The translations under genes were made by a program, and so were the position numbers. Below the pieces are notes generated by a model. It ran no database searches. It had not been told where the DNA came from and saw nothing but the letters and a program-made list of their open reading frames with translations. From an uncultured Candidatus Saccharibacteria bacterium (GTDB taxonomy: Bacteria; Patescibacteriota; Saccharimonadia; Saccharimonadales; Saccharimonadaceae), in the NCBI GenBank assembly GCA_947169915.1, contig CAMVRN010000001.1:89584-153583 (forward strand): a DNA stretch of 64,000 nt. The letters are read 5' to 3'. Within the stretch, counting starts at the first letter, position 1. Every line of letters starts with the position of its first letter. Positions 55,422 through 64,000 of this stretch are shown here, one piece after another.

Positions 55422-55498
55422 GGTCCGGTAGCTCAGCTGGTTAGAGCACGAGCCTCTTAAGCTTGGTGTCGAGGGTTCGAGTCCCTCCCGGATCACCA
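55422..55498 (+). tRNA. tRNA-Lys (CTT)
   Basis: Plus-strand cloverleaf: acceptor GGTCCGG/CCGGATC, anticodon stem CGAGC/GCTTG with loop CTCTTAA (anticodon CUU), T-loop TTCGAGT, encoded CCA. Its last six bases overlap the end of the recombinase remnant, marking the border of the accessory island. Confidence 0.95.
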
Positions 55499-55813
55499 AC
55501 AGGTAATTTGGCCTGTTTTTACGCCTGAAATTAGAGTCTGAAACGGTTCTTTATGTCTGTAAAGGACCGTTTTTTGTTGGTCAATTTCGAGGTTCAAGAA
55601 ATTTTCGGCAGTTAGCTTTGATTTGCTTGGATCCACGATTTTCTCGTTAATTTCCGTTAGCTCATCATCCAGCTTTGCCATTTCTAATTGCCTTGCATCA
55701 ATTTGCTGTTTGATGCGGTCTTTGGCCGGTTTAGGCGCATCCTTGCCGAGTTCAGTATATTGCTCGGCAAGTGCGTCTATCTGGCGTTGTTTGTTATTCT
55801 TTTTGGCCTGCAT
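55493..55813 (-). pseudogene. Serine recombinase C-terminal remnant
   Basis: This 106-residue frame is the C-terminal coiled-coil part of a large serine recombinase: KAKxNNKQRQIDALAEQY-like helix, KDRIKQQIDARQLEM and the typical SKLTAENFLNL, then LNLEIDQQKTVLYRHKEPFQTL, which normally lies further on. The catalytic and zinc-ribbon domains are absent, and the jump between the two LNL segments suggests an internal deletion. It ends in the tRNA-Lys 3' end. Likely the wreck of the integrase that brought the island. Confidence 0.7.
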
Positions 55814-55996: not shown

Positions 55997-56515
55997 ATGG
56001 CAAGCATAAAAATACAATTAAACCAATCGTTTATAGAAGTATCTGGCAGCGAGGACTTCGTGAAAGAGCAGTATGAGGAGCTTATAAAAAAATGCCACTT
56101 CTATGAGAGAGCAGAACATGAAGGAATCTACTCATCTAGCCATGAACAAGAAAATGGGAAAAGTGCTGGGCTTGTTTACGTTGAAAAAGATCTAGAAAAC
56201 TTCTTTTCTATAAATGAAAACGGCATCGTTAATATTAACATGCCTGTTCCAGGAAACAATAAAGCTGAAAGGATTAAAAGCTTAGTACTATTGATTGGAT
56301 ATGCAAAGAGGGATGAATGGATACCTTTTGCGGCTATTGCCGAGGAATGCAAAAGACAAGGCTGCTGGGATTCGAAAAATTTCGCATCTTATATCAAGCA
56401 ACTTGGCTCGAATGTCATGATAAACGGAAAAAACAAAAATAAATCCGTTAGGTTGACAGCAGTTGGTATAGAAGCGGCTAAGAATAAGATTAAAAGAATG
56501 TTTGGAGAGGACTAA
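55997..56515 (+). CDS. Unknown island protein A, winged-helix-like C-terminus
   Basis: A 172-residue soluble protein. The N-terminus (SIKIQLNQSFIEVSGSEDF, then VKEQYEELIKKC) looks like two strands and a helix; the C-terminus (VLLIGYAKRDEWIPFAAIAE, then SKNFASYIKQL) resembles a winged-helix domain. The third gene of the operon encodes a protein with the same plan, so the two are paralogues. SD AAAGGAG. Not a family I can name; similar short proteins with this N-terminal motif occur near defence genes, a recollection that needs a search. Confidence 0.72.
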   Translation: MASIKIQLNQSFIEVSGSEDFVKEQYEELIKKCHFYERAEHEGIYSSSHEQENGKSAGLVYVEKDLENFFSINENGIVNINMPVPGNNKAERIKSLVLLIGYAKRDEWIPFAAIAEECKRQGCWDSKNFASYIKQLGSNVMINGKNKNKSVRLTAVGIEAAKNKIKRMFGED

Positions 56516-56518
56516 ATT

Positions 56519-57298
56519 ATGAAAGATGATATTGAGAATCTATTAGATGGCTTACCTGTTGAATTAGTACAAAGGTTAATAGATAGGTATGAAAAAGCAT
56601 CTTTAGCTTATTGCTATAATAATTGGTCTAATCTTTTTTCTGAAAGTGGTTGTTTTTCGGAAATTGTGTTTCGCTTAACGCAGTGGCATTGTTTTGGCAA
56701 ATATACGGAAATCGGTGAGCGTCTAGAAGATTTCAATATAGATGCTCTTAGAAAATTCGAAAGCACGTCAAAACAAAAGGCGCCAGATGAGTGGAGAATA
56801 ATTATTCCTCGCGTGTTATTCGCGATGCGTCAATTCAGAAATGCTCGTGGCGACATGCACGAAACTTTAATTAGCCCTAATTTTATCGATTCGGAATATA
56901 TCTATTCTAGTATGGAGTGGTTACTTTGCGAAATATTGAGGCTAAAATCAGGCAAAAGTCGGGAAGAGATTAACTTGGTTATCAAAAAGATTGAAGCGCA
57001 TTACGCACCAATGGTGTGGGATAGTGGAACTACAATGAGGGTACTTTCCACCAAGTTGAGTTGTCGCGACCAAGTGTTAGTTTTACTCTATAGCTGCCAA
57101 GAGGCACAAACAGTAGAAGAGCTGTTACGTGAAACAGAGTATGTTTCAAAAAGCAGGTTTAGGAGTACTATTTTGGGAGAGTTACACAAACAGCGGCTTA
57201 TCGAATATGATGGCGAAAAATGTAAAATCTCACCATTAGGCATTATCGAGGCAGAAAAAATAATTAAAAACTGGATGGAAAAAAATGGAAAAGAATAA
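56519..57298 (+). CDS. Unknown island protein B
   Basis: A 259-residue protein in the middle of the operon, three bases after gene A and overlapping gene C by 14 bases. The first 150 residues are helical and aromatic (VELVQRLIDRYEKASLAYCY; PDEWRIIIPRVLFAMRQFRN, ARGDMHE). The last 75 look like a winged helix (VLVLLYSCQEAQTVEELLRE, FRSTILGELHKQRLIEYDGE, KCKISPLGIIEAEK). R-N-ARGDMHE resembles a motif region of abortive-infection-type helical proteins, but I cannot assign a family. Confidence 0.72.
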   Translation: MKDDIENLLDGLPVELVQRLIDRYEKASLAYCYNNWSNLFSESGCFSEIVFRLTQWHCFGKYTEIGERLEDFNIDALRKFESTSKQKAPDEWRIIIPRVLFAMRQFRNARGDMHETLISPNFIDSEYIYSSMEWLLCEILRLKSGKSREEINLVIKKIEAHYAPMVWDSGTTMRVLSTKLSCRDQVLVLLYSCQEAQTVEELLRETEYVSKSRFRSTILGELHKQRLIEYDGEKCKISPLGIIEAEKIIKNWMEKNGKE

Positions 57299-57818
57299 TT
57301 TTTTATCAATTAAGATCAAGCTTGGTGCTGCGGAATTTGAAGCTAAGGGGCCTATTGAGGATGTGAAAGCTTCAAGGGATTCTTTTCTGGGCTTCATTAA
57401 GGAATGCTCAGAACAGTTACCTTTGTTGCATACTGACTCTAGAATGATAGCAGAGACCTCTCAAGACGGCGCTATCATTGAAAATAAAGAAATTGATTCA
57501 AATCATGACATATCCTATAGTTCTTTTAATGAAATGAAACGCAAGTTAAACTTATCCAGTAATACAGACCTTGTTATGGGGGCAGCTTATTATTTAAGTA
57601 CTCATGAGGGAATGGGGACGTTTACTTCGCAAGATATAAAGGAGCTTTTCCAAAGAACAAAGAATAGAACAAAAATTAATATTTCCCAATTCATAGCACA
57701 AAATATAAGCAAAGGGTTAATCGAGGAAGTGGGGATGTCTGATAAAAAACAAAAAGAATATCAAATATTAGACTCTGCAAATGAATGGCTGCAACAACTA
57801 GGAAAAGCAAAAGACTAA
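57285..57818 (+). CDS. Unknown island protein C, paralogue of A
   Basis: A 177-residue protein. SIKIKLGAAEFEAKGPIEDV and SFLGFIKEC align with SIKIQLNQSFIEVSGSEDFV and ELIKKC of protein A. The C-terminal part (DLVMGAAYYLSTHEGMGTFT, then SQDIKELFQRTK and INISQFIAQNISKGLIEEVG) is winged-helix-like. It overlaps gene B by 14 bases. Two paralogous sensor-like proteins around a larger one suggest a complex. Function unknown. Confidence 0.72.
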   Translation: MEKNNFLSIKIKLGAAEFEAKGPIEDVKASRDSFLGFIKECSEQLPLLHTDSRMIAETSQDGAIIENKEIDSNHDISYSSFNEMKRKLNLSSNTDLVMGAAYYLSTHEGMGTFTSQDIKELFQRTKNRTKINISQFIAQNISKGLIEEVGMSDKKQKEYQILDSANEWLQQLGKAKD

Positions 57819-57854: not shown

Positions 57855-58064
57855 TTATTCGCTCGCGATTAAATCTCCCACCACATTAATGTTTTGCATA
57901 AGAGCATTTAGGCGTTCAACGATACGTTTTTGTCCAGCTAGCGGCGGCAGCGGCATAATCGTAGCAATGATTTTTTCTTTTGAAATGTTTGGTTGAGCAG
58001 CGCCGGCCGCACAAAGTACGGCGACGATGCTAGCTATAATGATTATTTTCTTTTTCATACGCAT
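57855..58064 (-). pseudogene. HsdS C-terminal fragment joined to a signal-like sequence
   Basis: The frame starts MRMKKKIIIIASIVAVLCAA, then continues AAQPNISKEKIIATIMPLPP and LAGQKRIVERLNALMQNI. The second part is the conserved end of type I specificity subunits of the common (EcoKI-like) kind, different from the intact hsdS at 60211. The signal-like start has no business on an HsdS, so this is a deletion junction. Its ATG overlaps the preceding remnant stop (TAATG). Confidence 0.6.
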
Positions 58065-58290
58065 TAGTACGGGTGCTTGCGTTCGGGAGTTTTACTGGCA
58101 AGTTTGGTGCCGACGATTGTGATGATACTAGACAGGGCATCGCTGAGGTTATTGATGGTATCGGAGATAAATAATTGCGATGGAAGTTTGAAAGGAAACC
58201 GACGATTGCCTTAAAACCGACTAGTAGCAGGTTTGCGCAATTGCTGATGAGGCTGGTTTTAACGACGACTTTTTCACGGTGGGGTTTCAT
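58064..58290 (-). pseudogene. Cation diffusion facilitator fragment with frameshifts
   Basis: MKPHREKVVVKTSLISNCAN and LLLVGFKAIVGFLSN match the N-terminus of CDF metal transporters. In other frames the match goes on as SIAII, then ISDTINNLSDALSSIITIVG and TKLASKTPERKHPY before TAA, so at least two frameshifts are needed and the rest of the gene is missing. It starts one base after the DUF262 gene stop. Confidence 0.7.
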
Positions 58291-58291
58291 A

Positions 58292-60202
58292 TTATTTATT
58301 GGCAATTTCTTGAAGTGCTAAGTTTAATAGTTTTATGTTGAATTCTCTGTTATTTGATGATAACTCCCAAGTATTCTGATTGACGTCAGCGAGCTTTCGT
58401 TCTGGAAGGTTGAGTGTTTGGATTTTTTCGTTTTTATAGTATTCTGAACCGTCTGCCAATGACTGAATTAAATATTCCCAGTTTGAGCCTAGGACTTTTC
58501 TGGCGTTTTTGTATTTTTCCAGTTTATCTTTAATTTCATCTGAGTTGGCAGAGGAATTCATTTGTTTATCTAATAGACTAAGGTTTTCAAATCTAAATCT
58601 TTCAGTATCAAAATCTTCGGGTCTAAAGAATTTGTTTTTCTTACTTTGCCAATTAGATAATCTATCAGAATTTTCATATTCTAATACACTATATAAATGC
58701 TCAATAGAAAAGTTCTCGCCAGCTAGAATGTATTGCAAATATTCGCTGAAGTCATGAGAATTATCGGCAGTTTTGTCCAGAAAACTTTCTTGACACCCCA
58801 TGACTACTTTTATTAGTCTTGAATAATCTTTAATATTGATATTTGAGACGTTTTTGTGGTCATTGTAGTTTAAATTGAAGATGTCTTCAATGGCGATGTT
58901 TGTTAAAATATCTAAAATTGAATTATTGTATTCACCTTTTTCGTTGACAGATATATTATCAATTAACCCTATTGTTCTTTTAGTGCTACTGCGAATGTAA
59001 TTCCAGATGAGAGTAAGATTTATTCGTTTAGATATAGTATTGAGCTCGTCTAACGAAATTGCGTTGGTGCCAGGATTGTATATATCATTATTGCCTGAAT
59101 AGTCGTGTCTTGTTTTGAACAGTTCGGTCAAGATTTTTAGTATATCTGAATATTTCTCGTATTGAAGTAATACCCAGGATAGATATAATGAAGAGCTTGG
59201 GTCTAGGCCAATATCCATGTTGGCGAAGTATTTGTAAATCGTTTCAAAATCAGATAAGTATTGGACGAATTTTTCAGTAAACTCTTTGGCTTTTATAGCG
59301 TCGTTAAATACCTCGTTTTTATAGAAAGACATCCATTTGCCTACGCCGGTTTCTGGAAGTGTTAAGATATTGTTATCGTTTTTATAATAGGCGTTGAGGA
59401 AAATATAGATAACATTATTGATGCCGTGCTTGTCACGGTCTTCACCGTAAGCTTTATAATCTTCTAAATCTGTACTTAAGCCAGGATAATTGGCGATTTT
59501 GGCAATTTGTTGCTTGATTTCAAAGATGTTATCTCCGGTTTCTGCTAGCCTGATAGATTGAGAGAGAATGGAATAAAAAATGTCAGCTTGGGTTAATTGA
59601 ATAGATAAGGAATTGATGTTTAGAAAGTATTTCAGAGATTCGCTGATGTTACTATACTCTAACGAAATAAGTTTTACATTGTTTAGAATGTAGTTATAAA
59701 GGCCATCATACCAGCTTTCCTGATATCCACTCCAGGCATTATCTATTTGACTATTAATTCTGTCTATGGTTTTGGATATATCAACACTATAGCCTTGTGA
59801 ATTGAAATGATTTTCTAGACCGAGGTTGTATTTTAATTCTTCTGTTAAGTAAAATTCTTCCTGAAGGACGAATTCGTCATCGGAAAATAGTAATTTTGCG
59901 TTAATATCTTTAACCTCGTCGGAGCATTTTTGAGAGAGGATGGACAAGATGAGGATTAAACTCGTCAAACGTTGCTGACCGTCAATAACGTCATTGACTT
60001 TGGCTGAGCAGAAAGCCAAAGTGCCAATAAAGTAGTCGGATGAAGGGTTGTTTTTATACTGGCTAAATATATCATCTATAAATTTGTAGAGGTTTCTACC
60101 ATCGTTTTCCTGACCCCAGACATAATCTCTTTGATAATATGGAACGTTTATAATCTTATATTTGTTAAAGATTTCTTTTACGCTAATAAAATCATGCTTC
60201 AT
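58292..60202 (-). CDS. DUF262/DUF1524 (GmrSD-like) restriction-type protein
   Basis: A 636-residue protein. The DUF262 N-terminus has VPYYQRDYVWG (about 20-30), DYFIGTLAF and VIDGQQRLTSLILILSIL (about 70-87); the DGQQR motif belongs to the ParB-like nucleotide-using fold of GmrS/SspE/BrxU-type proteins. The C-terminal region has IEHLYSVLE and RFRFENLSLLDKQMNSSANS, matching the EH and NLTLL-NSSAS motifs of DUF1524 HNH nucleases, although the usual IEHILP is altered. Fourth gene of the operon, nine bases after hsdS, with AGGAGG. Confidence 0.85.
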   Translation of the reverse strand: MKHDFISVKEIFNKYKIINVPYYQRDYVWGQENDGRNLYKFIDDIFSQYKNNPSSDYFIGTLAFCSAKVNDVIDGQQRLTSLILILSILSQKCSDEVKDINAKLLFSDDEFVLQEEFYLTEELKYNLGLENHFNSQGYSVDISKTIDRINSQIDNAWSGYQESWYDGLYNYILNNVKLISLEYSNISESLKYFLNINSLSIQLTQADIFYSILSQSIRLAETGDNIFEIKQQIAKIANYPGLSTDLEDYKAYGEDRDKHGINNVIYIFLNAYYKNDNNILTLPETGVGKWMSFYKNEVFNDAIKAKEFTEKFVQYLSDFETIYKYFANMDIGLDPSSSLYLSWVLLQYEKYSDILKILTELFKTRHDYSGNNDIYNPGTNAISLDELNTISKRINLTLIWNYIRSSTKRTIGLIDNISVNEKGEYNNSILDILTNIAIEDIFNLNYNDHKNVSNINIKDYSRLIKVVMGCQESFLDKTADNSHDFSEYLQYILAGENFSIEHLYSVLEYENSDRLSNWQSKKNKFFRPEDFDTERFRFENLSLLDKQMNSSANSDEIKDKLEKYKNARKVLGSNWEYLIQSLADGSEYYKNEKIQTLNLPERKLADVNQNTWELSSNNREFNIKLLNLALQEIANK

Positions 60203-60210
60203 ATATCCTC

Positions 60211-61482
60211 CTAGTATTGATATGTATAATTATCTATTAATTTTTGATTGTAATTGACTTTGCCTGATAAATAGAGATAGGAAATATAATTGATGGCTAG
60301 AGTATAATGTCTGCCGTTTTCTTCCCAAATATAATCTTCGCCTGCGGCAACTTCTAGACAGGGGAGGAGGATGATTTCGCGTCCGACTCTCGTAGAATTG
60401 GGCAACCAACTGTAATTGTATATACCGTTGCGACATACTTTCGTAATGGTTTTTGCTAGAAATAGATTGAGTTCCTTGCTGCTATTCATCTCCTTTTTTA
60501 ATTTTTCCTGTTTTGCGATTAGCCTAAAAACGCTTCCGTGTGTGTCCATCAAAACAAAATCGTAGTCGTGATAGAAGCATAGGCCAAAATGCATTGAATA
60601 TGTAAGATAATTATTCATTTTTTTTAATTCAGTTTCGCTATTTTTCTCTAGAAATCCCGATATGCCGTTGTTTTTCTCACTTTGCGTAATCAGCGCTATA
60701 GGGTGTTCATTGTCTTTTTCATTGGATATGTTCAGTGCTTTTTTGTTGGTAGATAGCTGATTTCTACTATCAAAAACAAAAAGTGAATCAAGTGAGAAAC
60801 TTTTCCAAGAAACTAGTGGTTTTTCTTTTAGGTATTCTGCTTCATATTTTGCTTTTTCTGCTTCATATTTTGCTTTTTCTGCTTCATACAGGCGAATGGT
60901 TTTTTGTTCGCGTAATTCTTTGGCTTCGTCCATTAACTTTTTGATATAGTCCACGGCTAAAGTATAATGTCTGCCGTTTTCTTCCCAAATATAATCTTCG
61001 CCTGCGGCAACTTCTAGACAGGGGAGGAGGATGATTTCGCGTGGGAATGTATCTTTAGTCACTGCATATGTTTGGTTGAAAATGCCATTTGCAAAGATGG
61101 TCGTGATAATGGTGGCAGCAAATTGCGCACACTGTTTATTATTGACAAATAATTCTTTTAGTTTTTCATTTTTATAGTGTAGTAATGCATTATGTCCTGT
61201 GGAGACGATATCGTAGTCGTGGTAGAAGCAAGTTCCTGCTCCACCATTTCCATTTGATGCTATTGTCAAATAATTACTTACTTTCTTTTGAAGTATTTCA
61301 TTGTCAATTGGTAGATAATTGACTATTCCATTATTGAATTTTCCAGCTGTAACATTTGCTATATATCCTTCTGTTGGCTTGCTAACTGGGTTATACTGTT
61401 TTGCTGTTTTGGATAGTTTATGAGCTCCGCTCAATTCAAATAGGTTATCCAGTCTAAATGCTTTCCAAATAACTTCGCTCAT
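60211..61482 (-). CDS. hsdS: Type I-like specificity subunit with two target domains
   Basis: A 423-residue HsdS of the compact type seen with type IIG/BcgI-like systems. Two halves (1-180 and 225-400) each begin WKxFxLDxLF and each end REIILLPCLEVAAGEDYIWE plus NGRHYTLA, which is identical in both at the DNA level. A helical linker (182-222) carries a repeated EAEKAKY heptad. Each half should read one half of a bipartite target. Coupled to hsdM (two-base gap) and to the DUF262 gene. Confidence 0.88.
   Translation of the reverse strand: MSEVIWKAFRLDNLFELSGAHKLSKTAKQYNPVSKPTEGYIANVTAGKFNNGIVNYLPIDNEILQKKVSNYLTIASNGNGGAGTCFYHDYDIVSTGHNALLHYKNEKLKELFVNNKQCAQFAATIITTIFANGIFNQTYAVTKDTFPREIILLPCLEVAAGEDYIWEENGRHYTLAVDYIKKLMDEAKELREQKTIRLYEAEKAKYEAEKAKYEAEYLKEKPLVSWKSFSLDSLFVFDSRNQLSTNKKALNISNEKDNEHPIALITQSEKNNGISGFLEKNSETELKKMNNYLTYSMHFGLCFYHDYDFVLMDTHGSVFRLIAKQEKLKKEMNSSKELNLFLAKTITKVCRNGIYNYSWLPNSTRVGREIILLPCLEVAAGEDYIWEENGRHYTLAINYISYLYLSGKVNYNQKLIDNYTYQY
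60301..60382. repeat. 82-bp direct repeat, copy 1
   Basis: Identical base for base to 60961-61042. Encodes the end of the second HsdS half (residues about 368-396). Confidence 0.95.
60836..60888. repeat. 21-bp tandem repeat in the hsdS linker
   Basis: Two and a half copies of tctgcttcatattttgctttt on the plus strand, each encoding one seven-residue turn (EAEKAKY) of the helix between the two target domains. Confidence 0.93.
60961..61042. repeat. 82-bp direct repeat, copy 2
   Basis: Identical to 60301-60382, displaced by exactly 660 bp, which equals 220 codons, so recombination between them keeps the frame. Confidence 0.95.
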
Positions 61483-61484
61483 TG

Positions 61485-62969
61485 TTAGTCCTCGCTCAGA
61501 ATATTGACAATGTATTTTTCAAACGAGCCATCTTCGTCTTTGAAGTTATTATTTGCTTCATCTATAAGTTTCTGCTTTTCGGATAACATCTTTTTAATGG
61601 TAATATTTTCCAGCGTAATGTCAGCTTCTTCTTTGTCGGTCTTGATTCGGCTTGGATTAATTTGGGCGACAATCTCAAGTTCTTTATTTACTTCGTAGAA
61701 ATTGTTCCAGTTTCTGACGAATTGAGAGCTTGTAGTTTCAACTGATTTATTTTTCATTTTCTCAAAAAGTTCTTTTTTCTTTTTTTCATAGGTATGGTTC
61801 TTATCTACGAGACCGCTATCTTTCAAATAAATATAGCCAGTGTCTGTAAAATTGTAATACCTAATCTTATCGTCGGCAGAGTGTGGTTTATCTACGTTAA
61901 AGACAAAAATTGAAGCTGGCTGAGATTTGCCGCTGTCGGTAAACAAATCGTCTTGCATTTTAATGACGGATTCTAAAGTAGCGATATTTAAAATTCTTGA
62001 GAAGATGTCTTTTTTCTGACCAAATTTTTGTGGAGGAATAATTACGATAACCTTGGTGCCAGTCTCTGAATTTCCACTAATTAGTGAGATGTTTTTTTCA
62101 ACGATTTCTAGTGGTTTGTATTTGTCTTCGTAAGGGGGATTAAGGATTGCTTTGGTTGGCTGAATTCTTTCTTCTTGTTCTCCATTTTTAATTTTGAAGG
62201 AGGACTTTTCTAGTTTTAAAACATCTTCATTAAACAATAAGTGGTAGTTTAGTGATTTTAGTAGGAAATTAGCGAGACACAAGGTGACCATTTTTGAATC
62301 TACGTCACTCGCAATGATAGAGTTGTAGAGCTTTTTCTGATATTTGTTGTATTCTTCTTGGGTGATTAACTTGTTTGAAAGATCTTTATTCATGTCATTT
62401 AGCATTTTAGAATAGGAGAGCAAAGAGAATAGTCCAGTACCGCTACACAAATCAGCTATGATATCTTTTTTGTAATCTATATCTGCCAGGTCAATCATTA
62501 GTTGGGCTGCGAATACGGGAGTTAAGACGATACCGTCATCGCCAGTTTTGGCTTTTTTGTCTATTTCCATATAAAGGGTCTCAAAGAACAAATCTGATGG
62601 TTTGATGATGATGAAATCTTTTGAGATGAAATCCTCTACGAATTTTTTGAATTCTTTACGATTGCTGTCTAATTTCGTGTTGACACCTGCGATAGTTTGT
62701 AGTGAATCAAAGATGGCTGCTTTTGTTTTTGGGAGTAGGTTGAGGCTCTCAATGCCTTGTTTGGCCAGACTGATTAATTGATCGATTGGTCTAGTCTTTT
62801 CATCTGTGAAATTAATAATTGATGTCAGCTTATTGACGTTTTGAAAATCTGTATTGGTTTTTAGACAGAAAATAAGCATTGCGATAAAAATAGTTTTACT
62901 GTTTCTATTTATTTCTGGATCTAATTCATAAATACGTTGATTAAGGCTTTTGATTTGACGTAGTTCCAT
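61485..62969 (-). CDS. hsdM: N6-adenine DNA methylase, HsdM-like
   Basis: A 494-residue gamma-class adenine methylase. A helical N-terminal part (1-130), then VLTPVFAAQLMIDLA (148-162), SAM motif I ADLCSGTGLFS (172-182) and catalytic NPPY (277-280). It lacks the N-terminal length of many HsdM but matches the group that pairs with short HsdS. Second gene of the operon, 20 bases after the nuclease gene, with AAGGAG. Confidence 0.92.
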   Translation of the reverse strand: MELRQIKSLNQRIYELDPEINRNSKTIFIAMLIFCLKTNTDFQNVNKLTSIINFTDEKTRPIDQLISLAKQGIESLNLLPKTKAAIFDSLQTIAGVNTKLDSNRKEFKKFVEDFISKDFIIIKPSDLFFETLYMEIDKKAKTGDDGIVLTPVFAAQLMIDLADIDYKKDIIADLCSGTGLFSLLSYSKMLNDMNKDLSNKLITQEEYNKYQKKLYNSIIASDVDSKMVTLCLANFLLKSLNYHLLFNEDVLKLEKSSFKIKNGEQEERIQPTKAILNPPYEDKYKPLEIVEKNISLISGNSETGTKVIVIIPPQKFGQKKDIFSRILNIATLESVIKMQDDLFTDSGKSQPASIFVFNVDKPHSADDKIRYYNFTDTGYIYLKDSGLVDKNHTYEKKKKELFEKMKNKSVETTSSQFVRNWNNFYEVNKELEIVAQINPSRIKTDKEEADITLENITIKKMLSEKQKLIDEANNNFKDEDGSFEKYIVNILSED

Positions 62970-62989
62970 TTAAGCTCCTTGATTTAGTA

Positions 62990-64000
62990 TTATTCTTCAG
63001 ATTCTTTTTGGACTGGGATGTAAACCTTTTTTAGAGGGAACATATCGCGATATTTTTCATCTAACTTATCGTAATATTCCAGAAATAGTTTTACAAACTG
63101 GACACCATTAATACCTCTAATGATTGGGTTTTGTTCTAGATAATCTTTTGCATCTTTTGAATAATCTGAAAGGGCGACAAAGAATCCGTAATCTCCTTCA
63201 CGTAATGAACCTTTTAAGTTCCGGATGAGAGGCGATGAAATCTTTGAGTCTTGGCTTTTGGCTTGAACAACAATTCTTGGTGGCAGTTGTAATTCTCCTT
63301 GATAAGCAACGATGTCTTTACCTTCATCGCCCCCATGTTGTGAAATTTTTGTTCTATACCCCATTGCCTCTAATACATTTGCAACAAGTTCTTCGAAATC
63401 ATAGCCTTTAAGCTGTCTACTAATTTCTTTGATTATAAAATCTGTTGTGCTTTCTTGAATTTCTTCAGCTGTTACAGCTACGCTTTCGTCTTCTTCTGAA
63501 ATATCATTCACGACGTTGTTTTCTATGGCGGCCATGAATTCGTTCGCGTAGTTTTTTACCGTAAAAAGAGTTATAAAAGACCCAATTTCGTATAGTGCGC
63601 CTTGAGAAAAAGCGGTTCTTGGAAGTTGCTTGAGCCATTTTACTTTTCTTTGATGTACATAGTGGTTTGCTTTGCTATTAAAAGTGTAATCGCTTTCTAC
63701 TGTACCTATATTAATCATACGGTCACTTTTAGAAGGAAAAACTACATAATCACCAATTTGCATTTCGCAGGTAAATCTAAATAGAGTTCCGGAATTAGTA
63801 GCAATATTGCCTTTCTTAGCGTCTGGGTAGGTTGAGGTATATTTTTCTCGGAATGCGTCTCGGTTTTTTTCTACATTAGATAAATCACCGATTTTTTCCC
63901 AACCTATGGCAAGTGTATTTCTTTGCAGAAACAGATCATCGTTTATTTCTGGAGTGTGAATGCCCCAAATGTGTTTTTCTTCCATTATTTCGTTATTCAT
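62990..64000 (-). CDS. Mrr-like restriction endonuclease
   Basis: A 336-residue protein reaching the right edge; the ATG at 64000 may or may not be the true start, and M6 is an alternative. The N-terminus (HIWGIHTPEINDDLFLQRNT; QIGDYVVFPSKSDRMINIGT) looks like a modified-base or EVE/PUA-type reader. The C-terminal Mrr catalytic fold has YDFEELVANVLEAMGYRTKI (200-219), GGDEGKDIVAY with candidate D229, and VQAKS with Q246-A-K248. It leads the operon, so it probably cuts on behalf of, or beside, the methylase-specificity pair. No HsdR translocase is visible inside the window. Confidence 0.88.
   Translation of the reverse strand: MNNEIMEEKHIWGIHTPEINDDLFLQRNTLAIGWEKIGDLSNVEKNRDAFREKYTSTYPDAKKGNIATNSGTLFRFTCEMQIGDYVVFPSKSDRMINIGTVESDYTFNSKANHYVHQRKVKWLKQLPRTAFSQGALYEIGSFITLFTVKNYANEFMAAIENNVVNDISEEDESVAVTAEEIQESTTDFIIKEISRQLKGYDFEELVANVLEAMGYRTKISQHGGDEGKDIVAYQGELQLPPRIVVQAKSQDSKISSPLIRNLKGSLREGDYGFFVALSDYSKDAKDYLEQNPIIRGINGVQFVKLFLEYYDKLDEKYRDMFPLKKVYIPVQKESEE

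What the first reader, a model, noticed from the sequence alone, without database searches (positions are those of the whole stretch)
58292..64000. Hybrid restriction operon: Mrr nuclease, HsdM, HsdS and DUF262/DUF1524
Seen: four tightly spaced genes on one strand encode an Mrr-like nuclease with a reader-like N-terminus, an adenine methylase, a two-domain specificity subunit and a GmrSD-like protein. Known: type I systems use the HsdR motor for cleavage; DUF262/DUF1524 and Mrr proteins usually restrict modified DNA (type IV). Inference: this operon joins a modification-guided module (M+S) with two nucleases of the type IV kind and may be a new hybrid in which methylation marks self and either nuclease acts without a translocase. 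It sits in a mobile island and is the best candidate for an undescribed system.
Basis: partly seen in the sequence, partly recalled or inferred. Interest (0 to 1): 0.72.

Follow-up and report, generated by a model that had tools for sequence, protein, structure and literature searches.

The report
Methylase beside two modification-reading nucleases
A tiny symbiotic bacterium carries one operon that combines a DNA-marking enzyme stripped of its own cutting domain with two separate DNA-cutting enzymes of the kind that attack modified phage DNA; it looks like independent defence genes gathered side by side, not a proven new machine.

Summary
Four tightly spaced minus-strand genes (58292-64000) encode an Mrr-type nuclease, an adenine methylase, a two-domain S subunit and a GmrSD-like protein. 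The window ends at a contig end. The next contig overlaps it by 55 bp and starts with ordinary genes, so there is no hsdR, and none passed cut-off elsewhere in the genome.

The labels change. The methylase is not HsdM. It is the methylase half of a BcgI-like (type IIB) enzyme without the N-terminal nuclease that nearly all detectable relatives carry. The Mrr protein is PADLOC candidate PDC-S02, an EVE/YTH-like modified-base reader fused to an Mrr catalytic domain.

The hybrid interpretation is weak. Among 80 PDC-S02 loci none has these partners. The family sits next to type I, type III, BREX or Eco57I-like systems, or alone. A related Saccharibacterium carries an 87%-identical copy in the same tRNA-Lys hotspot without M, S or GmrSD. 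No sampled relative of M lies beside a DUF262 or EVE-Mrr gene. A phage also carries a nuclease-less M·S pair alone. Best reading: a solitary type IIB-like methylase combined with two independent type IV nucleases. Rewiring to a trans nuclease is possible but unsupported.

The parts
62990..64000 (-). EVE/YTH-like reader (about residues 10-161) + Mrr PD-(D/E)xK nuclease (about 195-305); PADLOC PDC-S02
   Evidence: Mrr_cat E 1.6e-23; PDC-S02 E 3e-126; D225, D229, Q246, K248 invariant in 41 homologues; AF2 model and PDB fold search: MspJI/AspBHI for the whole protein, EVE (2p5d, 1wmm) and YTH structures for the N-terminal domain
61485..62969 (-). BcgI-like N6-adenine methylase lacking the N-terminal nuclease domain
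   Evidence: intact ORF, motifs DLCSGTG and NPPY; best homologues are BcgIA-like fused RM proteins; N-terminal PD-(D/E)xK extension of 111-255 aa in nearly all relatives, absent here
60211..61482 (-). BcgIB-like specificity subunit with two target-recognition regions and a coiled-coil spacer
   Evidence: BLASTP E 2e-14 over nearly full length to the S subunit of a BcgI-like system in a genome of the same family; Methylase_S E 2e-4
60955..61042 (-). 88-bp internal repeat of S, copy 1 (end of first recognition region)
   Evidence: 98.9% identical to 60295-60382
60295..60382 (-). 88-bp internal repeat of S, copy 2
58292..60202 (-). Single-chain GmrSD-like (DUF262 + divergent DUF1524/HNH) type IV restriction enzyme
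   Evidence: GmrSD_N E 9e-25; DGQQR motif present; HNH-like H (IEHLYS) and N (FENLSLL) present, HxxP proline missing; PADLOC HEC-06 E 5e-17
55422..55498 (+). tRNA-Lys(CTT), edge of the defence hotspot
   Evidence: ARAGORN; same tRNA and flanking permease border the hotspot in L031

Best explanation
A composite defence operon in a tRNA-Lys hotspot, built from functionally independent modules. M and S form a solitary type IIB-like methyltransferase that marks adenines at a bipartite site but has lost the fused nuclease, so it does not restrict. EVE-Mrr reads a modified base, one that M does not make, with its EVE/YTH-like domain and cuts modified invading DNA with its PD-(D/E)xK domain. GmrSD is a second, nucleotide-dependent nuclease for hypermodified DNA. 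Shown here: gene content, domain make-up, missing nuclease, lack of conserved linkage, purifying selection on Mrr. Inferred: all activities and their independence.
For: EVE/YTH reader plus MspJI-like nuclease fold. Mrr occurs alone in the same hotspot of a sister genome with dN/dS about 0.06 between the two copies, so it is maintained without M/S. EVE-Mrr is a promiscuous neighbour of type I, III, BREX and Eco57I-like systems or of none. Most relatives of M carry a nuclease; this M does not. A phage locus (L162) has a nuclease-less M-S pair with no partner nuclease. Precedents: GmrSD-family genes embedded in a type I operon but acting separately (PMC11411939); EVE-PD(D/E)XK fusions and EVE proteins with type I RM (PMC7641849); auxiliary nucleases in BREX loci (PMC12839542).
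Against: The four genes are packed with 2-20 bp gaps, with plausible ribosome-binding sites, which fits co-function. The same roughly 20-bp Mrr-to-M spacing occurs in a type I operon of Butyrivibrio, so Mrr repeatedly takes the first position. A methylase without a nuclease gives no obvious defence benefit to a 0.77-Mb genome.
Confidence: 0.6

Rival explanations
1. Rewired type IIB system: M and S recognise the site, and a trans nuclease (EVE-Mrr or GmrSD) replaces the lost fused nuclease and cuts unmethylated DNA. This is.
For: M lacks the nuclease that nearly all relatives have; two nucleases share its operon; a frameshift-split BcgIA with nuclease and methylase as separate ORFs exists in a prophage-like region (L145).
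Against: EVE-Mrr is kept without M/S in the sister genome and is not paired with any other BcgI-like M found; no extra domain that would dock on M or S was seen; reader and nuclease folds point to modified targets.
Confidence: 0.15
2. Degenerating or transient assembly: M-S is a decaying or phage-derived leftover (anti-restriction methylase) carried along in a hotspot where defence genes turn over.
For: The hotspot holds remnants: an HsdS fragment at 57855-58064 and a possible recombinase fragment beside the tRNA; no relatives of M in sampled same-genus genomes; a nuclease-less M-S pair in a phage.
Against: All four ORFs are intact with the expected main motifs; M starts at a proper ribosome-binding site rather than mid-domain debris.
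Confidence: 0.15
3. SspE-like coupling: adenine marks laid by M-S stimulate the DUF262 NTPase of GmrSD, so that it acts only in marked cells and against unmarked DNA.
For: SspE models also match the DUF262 part (E 7e-9); such coupling is known for SspE with phosphorothioate marks (own knowledge).
Against: HEC-06 and Orf5 models match better than SspE; no other M-GmrSD pairing found.
Confidence: 0.08

Closest known systems
Type IIB restriction-modification enzymes (BcgI, BsaXI)
   Same: Methylase core and two-domain S subunit; relatives found by search are BcgIA/BcgIB-like pairs
   Different: The N-terminal PD-(D/E)xK domain (BsaXI residues 1-192, PMC11997821) is absent
PADLOC PDC-S02 / EVE-PD(D/E)XK modification-dependent nucleases (Bell et al. 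2020, PMC7641849)
   Same: Full-length match E 3e-126; EVE/YTH reader plus Mrr nuclease
   Different: Located first in an operon with M-S and GmrSD; usual neighbours are type I, III or BREX genes or none
GmrSD family type IV enzymes (GmrSD, BrxU, TgvAB)
   Same: DUF262 with DGQQR and a DUF1524-like C-terminus
   Different: C-terminal domain divergent (below Pfam cut-off, HxxP proline missing); no close relatives found
Vibrio cholerae VPI-2: GmrSD-type TgvAB embedded in a type I RM operon (PMC11411939)
   Same: Type IV genes embedded in a modification operon
   Different: There a full type I system with HsdR is present; here the modification part has no nuclease and an EVE-Mrr is added

Membership tests
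Type I restriction-modification | HsdR translocase-nuclease in or near the operon | tested here: not met
   Continuation contig C2 has none; HSDR_N absent from the genome; SWI2_SNF2 no hit over cut-off
Type I restriction-modification | HsdM with N6_Mtase/HsdM_N domains | tested here: not met
   M matches neither Pfam family at E<0.1
Type IIB (BcgI-like) | BcgI-type methylase core with motifs I and IV | tested here: met
Type IIB (BcgI-like) | BcgIB-type S subunit encoded next to M | tested here: met
   E 2e-14
Type IIB (BcgI-like) | N-terminal PD-(D/E)xK nuclease fused to the methylase | tested here: not met
   10 residues before the aligned helical domain, versus 111-255 in nearly all relatives
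Type IIB (BcgI-like) | Cuts both sides of a bipartite site | not testable with these tools
   needs biochemistry
EVE-Mrr type IV (PDC-S02) | Modified-base reader domain | tested here: met
   N-terminal model best matches EVE (2p5d, 1wmm, 2hd9) and YTH structures, TM 0.4-0.5
EVE-Mrr type IV (PDC-S02) | Intact Mrr PD-(D/E)xK site | tested here: met
   D225, D229, Q246, K248 invariant in 41 sequences
EVE-Mrr type IV (PDC-S02) | Cleaves only modified DNA | not testable with these tools
   no assay; PADLOC lists the family as a candidate only
GmrSD | DUF262 domain with DGQQR | tested here: met
GmrSD | DUF1524 HNH nuclease domain | tested here: inconclusive
   E 0.02, below cut-off; H and N present, proline of HxxP replaced

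The most novel reading that the evidence does not exclude
A type IIB-like M-S complex that lost its nuclease domain and now directs, or licenses, a separately encoded EVE-Mrr or GmrSD nuclease: a restriction system without a translocase in which site recognition and cutting lie in different proteins, possibly acting on both unmarked and phage-modified DNA.
Probability: 0.13. Interest if true: 0.7.

Novelty: new variant of a known kind. Interest (0 to 1): 0.36.

Why it matters
It joins a nuclease-free BcgI-type methylase with two modification-reading nucleases in one operon, in a host with a genome of under 1 Mb. It also shows that PADLOC's PDC-S02 is an EVE/YTH-reader-Mrr fusion that attaches to many different modification systems. 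That supports the general idea that type IV nucleases are collected beside RM systems to catch phages that escape by modifying their DNA. If M·S really directs one of these nucleases, it would be an unusual split restriction design.

Tried and rejected
Hidden hsdR past the window: rejected. M as HsdM: rejected (no Pfam HsdM_N/N6_Mtase; relatives BcgIA-like). Single-sequence viral scan for M: no relatives; for Mrr: one weak, unhelpful locus. S and GmrSD in plasmids: none, or DUF262-only matches. M, S and GmrSD had no PDB sequence match beyond chance. A search for relatives of the component genes in up to 345 genomes of the order, 380 of the phylum and 291-391 Clostridia gave no second example of the four-gene order. 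An attachment-site repeat of the tRNA 3' end was not found in the window or the first 40 kb of C2. Promoter-like sites were no more frequent than in shuffles. Structures of M and GmrSD were not predicted, because no eligible alignment was available and a single-sequence model would be unreliable.

Full report
Observation. The window contains four intact minus-strand genes in the order Mrr - M - S - GmrSD, separated by 20, 2 and 8 bp; clear Shine-Dalgarno sequences precede M and GmrSD. Pfam gives Mrr_cat for the first, GmrSD_N (with a weak GmrSD_C) for the last, a borderline Methylase_S for the third and nothing for M.

Beyond position 64000. The window is G000:C1:89584-153583 and C1 ends there. 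The first 55 bases of C2 are identical to the last 55 of C1, and the sequence occurs nowhere else in the assembly, as expected of two contigs that meet at a k-mer junction. C2 continues with a zinc-ribbon gene, YjbR, a cyclophilin-like gene and a metal ABC transporter, not with hsdR. Independent support for the join: the same YjbR and cyclophilin-like genes neighbour the Mrr gene in a sister genome. HSDR_N has no hit in the whole genome. SWI2_SNF2 and N6_Mtase have no hit over cut-off. The assembly is 96% complete, so absence is strong but not absolute.

What M and S are. tblastn hits of M are type IIB (BcgIA-like) RM proteins of plasmids and phages, usually followed by an S gene. In Clostridia (391 genomes) 20 genomes had relatives, mostly of 594-723 aa. 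Aligned to M, most carry 111-228 residues before the helical methylase domain, usually with a P-(D/E)...(E/D)xK motif. Among 41 distinct relatives in viral contigs, 38 have such an N-terminal extension of 148-255 aa. The window's M has 10 residues there. The exceptions are informative: L145 is a frameshift-split copy with the nuclease as the adjacent ORF, and L162 is a phage locus beside ribonucleotide reductase genes with a 484-aa M and an S but no nuclease, most simply a self-protective methylase. S aligns over nearly its full length with the S subunit of a BcgI-like system in a genome of the same family. So M·S is a type IIB-like methylase that fails the nuclease criterion; it should not be filed as a working type IIB enzyme.

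What the Mrr protein is. It matches PADLOC PDC-S02 at E 3e-126. Its catalytic residues are invariant in 41 homologues. AlphaFold2 with that alignment gave mean pLDDT 87.6. PDB matches for the whole protein start with MspJI and AspBHI, both modification-dependent nucleases. The N-terminal domain alone (pLDDT 90.3, pTM 0.85) matches MJECL36, PH1033, THYN1 (DUF55) and several YTH domains, at TM 0.4-0.5; the first three are EVE-type structures by my own knowledge, and YTH domains bind N6-methyladenosine. EVE-PD(D/E)XK fusions and EVE proteins associated with type I RM operons were described by Bell et al. (PMC7641849).

Is the linkage conserved? One scan of 84,980 species genomes found 129 relatives of the Mrr protein, of which the best 80 loci were kept. 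None encodes a relative of the window's M, S or GmrSD. At most 16 of 35 loci with 7 kb on both sides have any adenine-methylase-like gene nearby; those include type I, type III, BREX and Eco57I-like systems, with R, Res or BREX components alongside in the type I, type III and BREX cases. The plasmid homologues show the same: Subdoligranulum Mrr-HsdR-HsdM-HsdS and Butyrivibrio Mrr-HsdM-HsdS-HsdS-nuclease-HsdR. The closest relative, 87% identical, is in Candidatus Saccharibacteria RGIG4410 (roe deer omasum). It lies in the same hotspot bounded by tRNA-Lys(CTT) and the same permease, without M, S or GmrSD beside it; M gave no match in that genome (no positive control). Between the two copies dN/dS is about 0.06. 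Conversely, neither the sampled Clostridia loci with relatives of M nor five GmrSD-relative loci show the pairing.

Mechanism. The parsimonious reading is a stack of independent modules: a marking enzyme plus two nucleases that attack modified DNA. The precedent is the GmrSD-type TgvAB pair embedded in a V. cholerae type I operon, where both systems act separately and tgvAB is 17 times more common than that arrangement (PMC11411939). Auxiliary PD-(D/E)XK and GmrSD nucleases are common in BREX loci (PMC12839542). If so, EVE-Mrr must not read the mark made by M. The rewired-nuclease reading remains possible because M lacks a nuclease and has two at hand, but nothing here ties them functionally.

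Origins. The operon is AT-richer (33-36% GC) than the window (42%). Nearby remnants (an HsdS fragment at 57855-58064 and a possible recombinase fragment at 55493-55813 beside the tRNA) show gene turnover at this site. S carries an 88-bp, 99% identical internal repeat that could allow recombination between its two recognition regions.

Limits. Sampling of the order, phylum and Clostridia was partial. The viral and genome scans use short conserved peptides and miss divergent relatives. Metagenome contigs could not be searched. No activity has been shown for any protein.

Noticed in passing
window 57855-58290: Fragment of an HsdS-like specificity gene (Methylase_S E 3e-5) downstream of what looks by eye like a broken cation-efflux gene start: debris of an earlier type I system in the hotspot.
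   Followed up: partly
window 55493-55813: Coiled-coil ORF abutting the tRNA-Lys 3' end that resembles, by eye, the C-terminus of a large serine recombinase; possible remnant of an integrative element (no Pfam support).
   Followed up: no
window 55997-57818: Three co-directional plus-strand genes of unknown function (one weak DUF6429) between the tRNA and the operon, AT-rich; possibly another small defence cassette.
   Followed up: partly
L031:15015-16340 and G000:C2:423-671: A reverse-transcriptase gene with a helix-turn-helix gene upstream in the sister hotspot is followed by about 250 bp of apparently non-coding DNA, 84% identical to a stretch in C2 of the window's genome where no RT was seen nearby. 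The C2 stretch has no Rfam match.
   Followed up: partly
window 60295-60382 and 60955-61042: 88-bp, 98.9% identical repeat inside the S gene, able to recombine and delete or swap a recognition region.
   Followed up: partly
L055: PDC-S02 EVE-Mrr gene directly after a BREX PglX-PglZ-BrxL run; the family attaches to BREX as well as to type I and III systems.
   Followed up: partly
L162:5027-7541: Phage locus beside ribonucleotide reductase genes carrying a nuclease-less BcgI-like M and S pair: a likely self-protection methylase.
   Followed up: partly
L145:6127-9231: BcgI-like RM gene split by a frameshift into separate nuclease and methylase ORFs, while a near-identical copy in the same genome (L146) is unsplit.
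   Followed up: partly
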